Under the pieces are notes generated by a model. It saw only the letters and a program-made list of their open reading frames with translations. It was not told the origin of the DNA and made no database searches. Below are positions 58,550-61,824 of a stretch of DNA of 64,000 nt, in pieces. Where the stretch lies: contig NZ_CP081958.1 in NCBI RefSeq assembly GCF_019823105.1, positions 2,728,001 through 2,792,000 on the forward strand, in the 5' to 3' direction. Both the position numbers and the translations under genes were made by a program. This DNA comes from Halobaculum magnesiiphilum (lineage in GTDB: Archaea > Halobacteriota > Halobacteria > Halobacteriales > Haloferacaceae). Numbering within the stretch: position 1 is the stretch's first letter; every line of letters begins with the position of its first letter.

Positions 58550-59356
58550 CTACCGCAGCGCGTCGACGCCGGTCGCCGGGTAGCCGACGACGTGGTCGAC
58601 GCCGACGGCCTTCAGGTCGCGCACGCGATCGCCGACCGTCTCGGGGTCGCCAACGAGCGCGTAGTCGCGCACCGCCGCCGAGAGCACCTCGCGGGCGCGC
58701 CCCGTCGCCGCGGCGTCGGTCGCGGCGCCCTCGGGGAGCGCCTCGCGGACGGGCCTCCGCCGGGCGGCGTAGTCGCCGACGGCGTCGAGCACGGCGTCCT
58801 CGTCGTCGGTCGGAACGACAGGGGCGTACAGGGCAACCTCGCCGTCGAAGCCGGCCGCCCGCAGTCCGCGCACGTCGCGCTCGGTCGCCCGCGAGAGCAG
58901 GTCGTACTGGACGCCGCCCGCGGCGAGCGCGAGGCGCTCGACGCCCTCGGTGCCGACCCACGGCGTGCCGCCGGCCTCGCGAACCGCGGCCGCGGCGTCG
59001 CCGAGGCGGGGCGCGACCGCGCGCTTGCGCTCGGTCTCCGAGAGGTACGCGCCGTGGCCCGCGACGAGCACGCGCTTCGCGGCCTCGGGGAGTGTCTCGA
59101 CCAGGGAGTCGTCGCCGCGGGGGTCGAAGCCGTCGGCGCGGACGGGCGTCGTCACACGGAACTCGACCGACTCCGCGAGGGCGGCGAGCGCGGCGGCGTC
59201 CGGCAGCGCCTCGCGTCCCTCGTAGTCGAGGCACACGAGGTCGACCGGGAGGTCGGCCGCGGCGGACACGTCGCACTCGGTCGGCTTGAGCGCGACCCCG
59301 TCGAGGTTCGTTCGGGCGACGACGCTGTCGGCGGCTTCGGATGCGGTGAGCTTCAT
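58550..59356 (-). CDS. Luciferase-like/F420-related TIM-barrel protein, degenerate
   Basis: A 268-residue protein. The C-terminal DYALVGDPETVGDRVRDLKA and VGVDHVVGYPATGVDALR match the end of bacterial luciferase-like and F420-dependent methylene-H4MPT reductase enzymes, but the N-terminal half (NLDGVALKPTECDVSAAADL) is shortened compared with active ones. It is similar to a haloarchaeal domain of unknown function (perhaps DUF7388, from memory). It lies 84 nt upstream of the creatininase gene on the same strand. Confidence 0.7.
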   Translation of the reverse strand: MKLTASEAADSVVARTNLDGVALKPTECDVSAAADLPVDLVCLDYEGREALPDAAALAALAESVEFRVTTPVRADGFDPRGDDSLVETLPEAAKRVLVAGHGAYLSETERKRAVAPRLGDAAAAVREAGGTPWVGTEGVERLALAAGGVQYDLLSRATERDVRGLRAAGFDGEVALYAPVVPTDDEDAVLDAVGDYAARRRPVREALPEGAATDAAATGRAREVLSAAVRDYALVGDPETVGDRVRDLKAVGVDHVVGYPATGVDALR

Positions 59357-59413
59357 GTGAGAGAGACGGTCGGGTGATCGGTGATCGGTCGAGGCGTCGA
59401 GCGGTCGGATCCG

Positions 59414-59467
59414 GATGTCGGCGTCGGTGTCGATGTCGGCGTCGGTGTCGATGCCGGCGTCGGTGTC
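59414..59467. repeat. Three tandem 18-bp repeats
   Basis: The unit gatgtcggcgtcggtgtc occurs three times (the third has gatgccggcg) in the region between the LLM-like gene and the first small membrane-protein gene. The surrounding 275 bp (59357-59631) have no gene. Confidence 0.85.
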
Positions 59468-59631
59468 GGCGTCGCCGACGCCGTCGGCGGAGAACTAGAA
59501 CGGTCGCGGAACGCGATCCATCGCCTGTGCGGCCATACTACTGGTGAACACGCTCGCGGGAATAAGCGTGGTGTTCTCGTCAGAATCGGCGAGGCCGGGG
59601 ATTCTTGTTCCAGGACATACACGAACGCGAT

Positions 59632-59796
59632 ATGTCCGACGCGGGCGACGCCGACAGGGGGCCGATCGTCACGAGCGGCGAGCGGTCGATCGCCGACCGG
59701 TTCGGGAGCGTCGACGGCTGGGCGAAGGCGTCGATCGCGCTCGCGGGCGTCCTCGTGCTGTTCTTTCTCGCGCTCGTGGTCGTGAGCTACGTCTGA
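59632..59796 (+). CDS. Mini membrane protein A (54 aa)
   Basis: A 54-residue protein with a polar N-terminus (MSDAGDADRGPIVTSGERSI) and one C-terminal transmembrane helix ending LVLFFLALVVVSYV. The TATA-like GATTCTTGTTC (59600-59610) lies 28 nt before the ATG, supporting a real leaderless gene. It resembles the protein encoded at 59837-59977, which ends LGLFFLALVVLSYV. Function unknown. Confidence 0.75.
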   Translation: MSDAGDADRGPIVTSGERSIADRFGSVDGWAKASIALAGVLVLFFLALVVVSYV

Positions 59797-59836
59797 GCGG
59801 CGCCGACTACTTGTAGACCCACCGCCTACCGGCGGT

Positions 59837-59977
59837 GTGGACCTCAGTAACCTCTCGGTGGGCACCGAGGACGGCGGCCGGAGCGTCGTCCAGTCGAGCC
59901 GCGTGGTCTCCATCCTCGTGCTGGCCGGCGCGCTGGGCCTGTTCTTTCTCGCGCTCGTCGTCCTCAGTTACGTGTGA
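59837..59977 (+). CDS. Mini membrane protein B (46 aa)
   Basis: A 46-residue protein starting at GTG (VDLSNLSVGTEDGGRS) with a single transmembrane helix VSILVLAGALGLFFLALVVL and the end SYV. A TATA-like ACTACTTGTAG (59806-59816) lies about 28 nt upstream. Both nucleotide and protein sequence of the last 15 codons match mini-protein A, indicating a tandem duplication. Function unknown. Confidence 0.7.
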   Translation: MDLSNLSVGTEDGGRSVVQSSRVVSILVLAGALGLFFLALVVLSYV

Positions 59978-60007
59978 GCGCCGCTCCGCGGGCCCCGAAG
60001 CCCGCGC

Positions 60008-60607
60008 TCACACCGGCAGGTCGGCGTCCGGGTCGACGACGCGGTCGACCTCCGCGGGCATCTCCCAGTCGGTGAGCAGTTCGAGCAGTTGAACGAGCAT
60101 GCGGCCGGTCGCCCCCCAGACAGTGTAGCCGTCGACGTGGAAGAAGTGGAGGCGGACCTCCCCGTAGTGTGGGTGATCGCGGCGCTCGGACTCGTAGTTC
60201 TCGCGGGCGGTCAGCTCCGAGACGGGGAGGATCGCGATCTCGGCGACCTCGTCGTCGCTGGGGACGTACGTCCGGTCGGGCGCGGTGCCGACGAACGGCG
60301 TGACCGCGTACTCCGAGACGGTTTGGATGTCGTCCATGCGGCCGATCACCTCGACCTCCTCGGGCCGCAGGCCGATCTCCTCGTCGGCCTCGCGCAACGC
60401 CGTCGACGTGAGGTCAGGGTCGTGCGACTCGACGCCGCCGCCGGGGAAGCTCATCTGCCCGGGGTGGCTCCCGAGGTGGTCCGCACGCTTCGTGAAGAGG
60501 ACGTGCGGCGCGCCGCCCCGGTCGACGATCGGCGCCAGCACCGCCGCGCGTCGCTCGGCGTCCGTCACCTCGACGGGGGCGTACCGACGAACGCGCTCGA
60601 AGTCCAT
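60008..60607 (-). CDS. Nudix hydrolase, CoA pyrophosphatase type
   Basis: A 199-residue Nudix protein. HVLFTKRADHLGSHPGQMSF then PGGGVESHDPDLTSTALREA and DEEIGLRPEEVEVIG give the NudL/CoAse signature (LLTKRS..GQ..FPGG) with the Nudix box READEEIGL. Such enzymes hydrolyse CoA or related pyrophosphates. A minus-strand TATA GGTTGAAGC (60630-60638) lies about 28 nt upstream of the ATG. Confidence 0.9.
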   Translation of the reverse strand: MDFERVRRYAPVEVTDAERRAAVLAPIVDRGGAPHVLFTKRADHLGSHPGQMSFPGGGVESHDPDLTSTALREADEEIGLRPEEVEVIGRMDDIQTVSEYAVTPFVGTAPDRTYVPSDDEVAEIAILPVSELTARENYESERRDHPHYGEVRLHFFHVDGYTVWGATGRMLVQLLELLTDWEMPAEVDRVVDPDADLPV

Positions 60608-60708
60608 ACCCCCTATGCTGGCCCGTCCGGCTTCAACCGTGCGGTCGTGTCGGACGTTTCGATCGGCCGCCGTCGCCCGAACACGTTCAGTCGGCCGGGG
60701 CCGTCCCG

Positions 60709-61824
60709 TCACTCGTCGGTTACGTCGCCGTTCGCCGCGTCGCGCGTGTCCGCCGTCGCGGCGGCAGCAACGTCGTCCGGCGACAGGGAGACATCGTTCC
60801 AGGGCGGGAGCCGGGTGTCGGCACCCGGCGCCGCGATGGACTGGGCGTACGTCCGCACCTGATCGCGCTCGCCGCCCCGATCGTAGGAGAGCCCGTTGAA
60901 CGCCGCGTCGGCGGCGTAGCGGTCGACGTACGACTCGGCGGCCCCGCGGTAGGCGTCCGGCAGCGCGTCGTAGTCGGGCTCGACGCCGTGCTCCTCGGCC
61001 GCGCGCAACAGCGCCGCGCCGACCGACCGGCTCATGTCCGAGAGCCCGGTCGGCCCCGAGACCGCGCGATGGTCGTGTTCGTAGCTTCCCAGGTCGACCT
61101 GCGCGGCGCCGTCGATACCGACCGCGTCGTATGCGGCCGCGAGTGTCCCGACCTCCAACCCCCAGGTGCGCTGGACGGGCATCGCGGCGACCACGTCGCC
61201 GGTCGCGGCGAACTCGCCGGCGAGCGCGTACCGGAACGCGGCCATGTACTCGAGGAACTCCGAGTCCGGGTGGGCCTCGCGCAGCGCGCGGACCAGGGGC
61301 GTGTAGAACAGCCGGAAGAGCCGCCCGTACAGCTGTCCGTTCTCGACGCGGGCGTAGTATCCCTTCGAGAAGTCGAACCCGTTCGCCAGCGGGAACAGCA
61401 GCCGCCGGACGTATTCCCGTGAGTAGGACTTCGTGTCGGCGTCGTGGACGACGACGTACTCCTCCTCCAGTGCGCGCCCCAGGGCCAGCCACACGTCCCG
61501 ACCCTTCCCGCGCTCCCCGGCGAGCCCGGCGTCGGCGAGCAGGTCCCCGACGCGCGGGCCGTCACACCACAGCGTCTCCAGCGGGAGGTCGAAGCCGTCG
61601 AGCCACTCGCGGAAGGCGCCGACCCGCTCGGCGGGCGCGCGGAGGGGGACGACCACCCGCGCGGGGTCCAGCGCCTCCAGCTCCGAGAGCACGCGCTCGG
61701 CGGCGAGGCCGGCGTACTCCCGCTCGGTCATCGGCACGACGACGGCCGCCCGGTCGGCGGGCGCGTCGGGCGCCCCCTCGCCGAACGCGTGGAGCGTGGC
61801 GACGCGCTCCTGCACGTATTCCAT
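60709..61824 (-). CDS. Glucosyl-3-phosphoglycerate synthase-like glycosyltransferase
   Basis: A 371-residue GT-A-fold glycosyltransferase: YVVVHDADTKSYSREYVRRL has a DxD motif (about residue 130) and the following LANGFDFSKGYYARVENGQL, GRLFRLFYTPLVRAL and AAFRYALAGEFAAT are like GpgS/GT81 enzymes that make glucosyl-3-phosphoglycerate, a compatible-solute precursor. The start ATG (61822-61824) follows a TATA ATTTATTCG (61848-61856). The C-terminus is an acidic Ala/Asp tail. Confidence 0.85.
   Translation of the reverse strand: MEYVQERVATLHAFGEGAPDAPADRAAVVVPMTEREYAGLAAERVLSELEALDPARVVVPLRAPAERVGAFREWLDGFDLPLETLWCDGPRVGDLLADAGLAGERGKGRDVWLALGRALEEEYVVVHDADTKSYSREYVRRLLFPLANGFDFSKGYYARVENGQLYGRLFRLFYTPLVRALREAHPDSEFLEYMAAFRYALAGEFAATGDVVAAMPVQRTWGLEVGTLAAAYDAVGIDGAAQVDLGSYEHDHRAVSGPTGLSDMSRSVGAALLRAAEEHGVEPDYDALPDAYRGAAESYVDRYAADAAFNGLSYDRGGERDQVRTYAQSIAAPGADTRLPPWNDVSLSPDDVAAAATADTRDAANGDVTDE

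What the first reader, a model, noticed from the sequence alone, without database searches (positions are those of the whole stretch)
59632..59977. Tandem pair of tiny membrane proteins sharing LFFLALVVxSYV
Two adjacent ORFs of 54 and 46 codons each have their own TATA spacing and nearly identical C-terminal transmembrane ends at both DNA and protein level, while N-termini differ. This indicates duplication of a functional microprotein family.
Basis: seen in the sequence. Interest (0 to 1): 0.6.

Follow-up and report, generated by a model that had tools for sequence, protein, structure and literature searches.

The report
Paired tiny membrane proteins in Halobaculum
A salt-loving archaeon of the genus Halobaculum carries two neighbouring, related genes for very small single-helix membrane proteins; they are real, conserved genes found only in Halobaculum and two related genera, and probably attach to a larger membrane protein that is still unknown.

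Summary
P1 (59632-59796, ATG, 54 aa) and P2 (59837-59977, GTG, 46 aa) are two small ORFs 40 nt apart. Each has one C-terminal transmembrane helix ending ...LxxFFxxLVxxSYV and its own TATA-like box about 28 nt before the start codon, so each is predicted to make its own leaderless mRNA. The family is conserved: all 11 Halobaculum genomes held, all 3 of a sister genus (g16), and Ca. Halobonum have it, in the slot between a DUF7388 gene and a Nudix gene. It is essentially absent from the other genomes sampled in the class. Copy number is 1-3. Purifying selection is evident (pN/pS 0.43 for P1, 0.27 for P2), and seven C-terminal residues are invariant across 23 copies. The duplication predates the Halobaculum/g16 split, so DNA identity of the ends is mostly protein constraint plus GC-rich codon bias. 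No Pfam, NCBIfam or PDB family matches. Most likely these are N-in/C-out membrane microproteins that pack through the invariant helix face onto a membrane partner or each other (inferred). An archaeal tandem toxin array is the main rival and is disfavoured. In passing I found a class-wide 12-13-codon, apparently leaderless leader peptide (M[VA]AQ[TA]MDRVPxx) ahead of DUF7388.

The parts
59632..59796 (+). P1 microprotein gene, 54 aa, ATG start, TGA stop; hydrophilic N-half MSDAGDADRG..., C-terminal TM helix
   Evidence: AlphaFold helix 27-53, pLDDT above 90 in its C-terminal part
59728..59793 (+). P1 C-terminal hydrophobic helix (residues about 33-54, KD 2.95), ending ...VLVLFFLALVVVSYV
59602..59609 (+). 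TATA-like box of P1 (TTCTTGTT, -30..-23); most orthologues have TTCTT at the same distance
59837..59977 (+). P2 microprotein gene, 46 aa, GTG start, TGA stop; MDLSNLSVGTEDGGRSVVQSSRV + TM helix
59903..59974 (+). P2 C-terminal hydrophobic helix (residues about 23-46), ending ...LGLFFLALVVLSYV
59808..59815 (+). TATA-like box of P2 (TACTTGTA, -29..-22)
58550..59356 (-). Flanking gene: DUF7388 protein (PF24114, E 1e-119), weakly like luciferase-type monooxygenases; divergent from P1
60008..60607 (-). Flanking gene: Nudix hydrolase (CoA pyrophosphatase-like); convergent with P2

Best explanation
P1 and P2 are two old paralogues of a lineage-specific haloarchaeal microprotein family. Shown by sequence: each is a conserved coding gene with its own TATA-like box at the leaderless distance, a variable hydrophilic N-half and a single C-terminal transmembrane helix that ends the protein with an invariant L-x2-FF-x2-LV-x2-SY pattern. 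Inferred: they sit in the membrane N-in/C-out, and the invariant residues, which fall on one side of the helix, pack against a larger membrane protein (or form homo/hetero-oligomers of P1 and P2) to tune its activity or stability, in the manner of small accessory or regulatory subunits such as AcrZ, CydX or KdpF. Paralogues with different N-halves would give the same membrane anchor different cytosolic contacts. The partner is not encoded next door.
For: Conservation in 11/11 Halobaculum, 3/3 g16 and Ca. Halobonum genomes. pN/pS 0.43 (P1) and 0.27 (P2); P1 is 54 aa in 8 species and P2 46 aa in 8; third codon positions vary most (35/53 and 29/45). Synonymous divergence is as high as or higher than in the neighbouring Nudix gene for most species pairs, so selection acts on the protein rather than an overlapping RNA. 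L, F, F, L, V, S, Y are invariant in all 23 aligned copies and cluster on one helix face (p 0.0003-0.03 depending on angle and background chosen; whole-profile periodicity test p 0.25, or 0.10 detrended). The C-terminal helix is predicted with block pLDDT 90-98. A TATA-like peak lies at -31..-26, and in Haloferax most transcripts are leaderless and start on the start codon (PMC4983044).
Against: No partner is identified and no neighbouring membrane protein co-travels. The helix-face signal is weak in the whole-profile test. pN is roughly 1.5-4 times that of the Nudix neighbour for most pairs, so much of the protein is loosely constrained. No expression or protein data are available here.
Confidence: 0.5

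Rival explanations
1. Archaeal membrane-toxin array: the tandem small hydrophobic proteins work like bacterial type I toxins (Ldr, Ibs, ZorO), depolarising the membrane when released from control.
For: Under 60 aa, one hydrophobic helix, tandem copies varying from 1 to 3, narrow distribution, intergenic location. Tandem duplication was used as a search criterion for type I toxins such as ZorO (PMC8309996).
Against: TATA-like boxes imply leaderless mRNAs with no 5' UTR for antisense or structure control. No synonymous constraint as an overlapping antisense RNA would give. About 22-32 residues of hydrophilic N-half, conserved within each paralogue. The review states that membrane-associated type I toxins are described only in Proteobacteria and Firmicutes. 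No homologue of P1 in the plasmid, phage or viral-contig collections searched.
Confidence: 0.12
2. General membrane-stress microproteins: the helices act on the lipid bilayer or membrane potential without a specific protein partner, as reported for E. coli YohP.
For: Short, single helix, no recognisable catalytic domain; YohP lowers membrane potential and alters membrane composition (PMC12719787).
Against: Seven invariant positions including polar Ser-Tyr at the helix end suggest specific contacts; the N-half is conserved within P1 and within P2.
Confidence: 0.2
3. Not genes: conserved non-coding DNA or chance ORFs in a GC-rich genome.
For: Short ORFs are common in GC-rich DNA (52 ORFs of at least 30 aa listed around the locus).
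Against: Reading-frame and length conservation, pN/pS below 1, third-position variation, position-locked promoter box, E-values down to 1e-27 in other species.
Confidence: 0.02
4. Recent duplication or gene conversion keeps the two C-terminal ends alike at DNA level.
For: 80% identity over 69 nt and a 20-nt exact run in this species.
Against: Paralogous ends differ at 35-68% of synonymous sites within genomes; P1 and P2 orthologues group by type, not by genome.
Confidence: 0.05

Closest known systems
Small accessory/regulatory membrane subunits (AcrZ, CydX, KdpF type)
   Same: Under 60 aa, one transmembrane helix, no enzymatic domain, conserved residues on the helix
   Different: No sequence relation found; no partner gene adjacent; archaeal, tandem paralogues, lineage-restricted
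Bacterial membrane type I toxins (Ldr, Ibs, ZorO)
   Same: Tandem, small, hydrophobic, single helix
   Different: Predicted leaderless mRNA, longer hydrophilic N-half, no sign of antisense RNA constraint, archaeal host
Sec61-beta / Sec61-gamma, the conserved archaeal small membrane proteins
   Same: Small, single C-terminal helix with a cytosolic N-half
   Different: No Pfam match; not universally conserved; duplicated in tandem

Membership tests
Membrane-associated type I toxins | Hydrophobic peptide under 60 aa with one helical TM segment | tested here: met
   criterion from PMC8309996
Membrane-associated type I toxins | Small antisense RNA antitoxin pairing with the toxin mRNA | not testable with these tools
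   No RNA data; indirect: synonymous sites are not constrained
Membrane-associated type I toxins | Translation control through a 5' UTR (structure sequestering the RBS, as in ZorO) | tested here: inconclusive
   TATA-like box at -31..-26 in most copies predicts transcripts that start at the start codon, i.e. no 5' UTR (PMC4983044), but transcription starts are not mapped
AcrZ/CydX/KdpF-like accessory subunits | Single-TM microprotein | tested here: met
AcrZ/CydX/KdpF-like accessory subunits | Partner membrane complex encoded in the same operon (CydX and KdpF, from general knowledge; AcrZ is unlinked) | tested here: not met
   Neighbours are DUF7388 (divergent) and Nudix (convergent), both soluble-type and on the opposite strand
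AcrZ/CydX/KdpF-like accessory subunits | Physical binding to a larger membrane protein | not testable with these tools
   needs pull-down
Sec61-beta / SecE or any Pfam/NCBIfam family | Profile match above curated cut-off | tested here: not met
   No family near its cut-off for either protein, and no E below 0.01 for any of 23 members in Pfam
Any family with a solved structure | Sequence-profile match in PDB | tested here: not met
   Best E 9.1

The most novel reading that the evidence does not exclude
A gene family that arose in, or was inserted into, one ancestral intergenic slot (between DUF7388 and Nudix) of the Halobaculum/g16/Halobonum lineage and became an ordered array of membrane microproteins sharing one anchor but carrying different cytosolic heads, working as a heteromeric membrane switch or as the first archaeal tandem membrane-toxin array.
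Probability: 0.15. Interest if true: 0.6.

Novelty: new member of a known kind. Interest (0 to 1): 0.3.

Why it matters
Archaeal small membrane proteins are scarcely studied: a survey notes that most conserved ones are hypothetical (PMC10903887). This is an undescribed, well-delimited family with a fixed genomic address, variable copy number and a sharp invariant helix motif. That makes it a tractable case for studying how lineage-specific microproteins arise and find membrane partners.

Tried and rejected
Recent duplication or gene conversion: rejected by synonymous divergence and tree. Mobile or viral origin: no homologue of P1 in plasmids, phages or IMG/VR. Known families: none in Pfam, NCBIfam or PDB. 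RNA element: only sub-threshold Rfam matches, far below gathering score. Wider family: a first profile search gave borderline hits in other genera. G070 (MTAMDMDMGLEIRGATEPGSRFKTVGVLFGLLLIAFLCLFVFSYV, between glnK-like and hemL-like genes) and G404 look alike in architecture but are not syntenic; a second iteration that included them drifted into unrelated TM segments, so I do not count them as members. Helical-face periodicity: significant for the invariant set (p 0.0003-0.03), not for the whole conservation profile (p 0.25, or 0.10 detrended). A hairpin at the P2 start (CACCGCC-TACC-GGCGGTG, 59820-59837) is not kept intact in the closest relative. The search for related loci with P2 or A1 could not run.

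Full report
Observation. P1 spans 59632-59796 (ATG, 54 aa) and P2 spans 59837-59977 (GTG, 46 aa), on the + strand and 40 nt apart. Their last 20 residues match at 15/20; at DNA level a 69-nt stretch is 80% identical. Both starts have a TATA-like box at about -28.

Where it is. The locus lies between a divergent DUF7388 gene and a convergent Nudix gene. A GpgS-like, Nudix, DUF7388 gene string is widespread in Halobacteria, often with only about 70-280 nt between Nudix and DUF7388. The microprotein genes fill that slot only in Halobaculum, a sister genus (g16, unnamed here) and Ca. Halobonum tyrrellensis. No such ORF appeared in the slot of the other named loci examined.

Distribution and copy number. 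All 11 Halobaculum genomes and all 3 g16 genomes have 1-3 copies. P1+P2: seven Halobaculum genomes (the window genome G000, plus G098, G093, G103, G067, G032, G108). P1 only: G004, G087. P2 only: G078. P1 plus two divergent copies: G052. In g16, a P2 orthologue is followed by a third type in G016 and G058; only the third type was found in G040. One reading is an ancestral ordered array P1-P2-P3 with losses (inference). In G032 and G058 the cassette stays together although extra DNA separates it from DUF7388, so it does not depend on the DUF7388 promoter. Of 391 genomes in the class, 19 match at E 0.01 or better, and matches outside these genera are weak and not syntenic.

Coding evidence. All eight P1 orthologues compared are 54 aa and all eight P2 orthologues 46 aa. 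Pooled pN/pS is 0.43 for P1 and 0.27 for P2, with variable columns by codon position of 23/22/35 and 14/10/29. Synonymous divergence equals or exceeds that of the adjacent Nudix gene for most pairs, while pN is higher: a fast-evolving protein under purifying selection, without overlapping nucleotide constraint.

Promoters. Aligning the 60 nt before 26 start codons gives an AT peak of 0.68 at -31..-26 against a mean of 0.35; no rotated control of 5000 reaches it. Typical forms are TTCTTGT, TACTTGT, TATTTAT and GGTATAC. In Haloferax volcanii 72% of protein-coding transcripts are leaderless, mostly starting on the start codon, the proposed haloarchaeal TATA motif is TTWT, and GUG-start leaderless mRNAs exist but are weaker (PMC4983044). 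So both genes are predicted to be separate leaderless units, with P2 perhaps weaker. This is an inference from position, not a mapped start. The single Halobonum copy has no ATG/GTG at the aligned start (GTC there; a GTG lies upstream), so its start is unsure.

Protein anatomy. Every copy has a hydrophilic N-half and one hydrophobic helix running to the C-terminus. AlphaFold on the P1 alignment gives helix 27-53 with block pLDDT 94, 98 and 90 from residue 31 on, and an uncertain helix 10-24. Across 23 copies M1, L41, F44, F45, L48, V49, S52 and Y53 (P1 numbering) are invariant. The helix residues cluster on one face (p 0.0003-0.03 by background), though the full conservation profile is not significantly periodic (p 0.25; 0.10 after detrending). 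I treat helix packing as suggestive. N-in/C-out is inferred from the lack of any tail after the helix.

Age of duplication. P1 (99/98) and P2 (88/78) form separate groups, and g16 has a P2 orthologue, so the split predates Halobaculum (deep branches are weakly supported in so short an alignment). Synonymous differences between paralogous ends within genomes are 35-68%. The shared DNA run in this species reflects invariant residues and codon bias.

Mechanism. The best account is an N-in/C-out microprotein pair using the L-x2-FF-x2-LV-x2-SY face to bind a membrane partner or each other. This is inferred; no partner is known. The main alternatives are a bilayer-acting stress microprotein like YohP (PMC12719787) and a tandem toxin array like Ldr/ZorO. 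For the toxin reading, size, helix and tandem arrangement fit, but predicted leaderless mRNAs, lack of synonymous constraint and the conserved N-half do not, and membrane-associated type I toxins are described only in Proteobacteria and Firmicutes (PMC8309996).

Novelty. No Pfam, NCBIfam or PDB match; a paper search for Halobaculum with 'small proteins' gave one paper, whose title and abstract concern pleolipoviruses (not read further). It is an undescribed family of a known kind (single-TM microproteins), with modest interest until a partner or phenotype is found. Whether databases already annotate these ORFs as hypothetical proteins could not be checked.

By-product. Divergent from P1 lies a mini-ORF on the minus strand, 59536-59495, ATGGCCGCACAGGCGATGGATCGCGTTCCGCGACCGTTCTAG (MAAQAMDRVPRPF), with AATAAG (minus-strand CTTATT) 25-30 nt before its ATG. 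My pattern picked up a candidate in 67 of 80 DUF7388 loci; two of these (L114, L121) are evidently spurious, leaving 65, nearly all 12 or 13 codons long. Consensus M[VA]AQ[TA]MDRVP, then 1-4 variable codons and a stop. GAT is used rather than GAC, and GTT rather than GTC, almost without exception. It is single-copy in 59 of 145 class genomes, and in the family genomes shared it appears only where DUF7388 is present. The variable codons and stop after the conserved core argue that it is translated. It looks like a conserved leader peptide of DUF7388 and may deserve its own study.

Noticed in passing
window 59495-59536, minus strand (and upstream of DUF7388 in L057-L136): Conserved, apparently leaderless 12-13-codon leader peptide (M[VA]AQ[TA]MDRVPxx, then stop) upstream of DUF7388 across Halobacteria (about 65 of 80 loci; single copy in 59 of 145 genomes), with a TATA-like box 25-30 nt before its ATG in the window and strong codon-level conservation (GAT, GTT). 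Possibly a regulatory or arrest peptide; no literature found for DUF7388.
   Followed up: partly
window 58550-61824: GpgS-like, Nudix, DUF7388 form an ancestral gene string in Halobacteria; the microprotein cassette sits in the Nudix-DUF7388 gap only in Halobaculum, g16 and Halobonum.
   Followed up: yes
L047/L182, L183, L185 (G404, G328, G365): Other haloarchaeal genera have short ORFs with a similar C-terminal helix (e.g. VLVGFLVVFFLLLVLLG); two lie beside a luciferase-like monooxygenase-type ORF (read by eye). Possibly a separate microprotein family.
   Followed up: partly
L048 (G070), match near 1501-1578: 46-aa-frame ORF ending VLFGLLLIAFLCLFVFSYV between glnK-like and hemL-like genes in another genus of the same family; possible distant relative at a different locus.
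   Followed up: partly
window 59413-59480: Short degenerate tandem repeat (about 18 nt, GTCGGCGTCGGTGTCGAT) between DUF7388 and its leader peptide; not shared in detail by relatives.
   Followed up: no
L011 (G032), about 400-1450: Extra DNA between the DUF7388 leader and P1 that appears to hold a further minus-strand ORF (PIN-like by eye, not searched).
   Followed up: no
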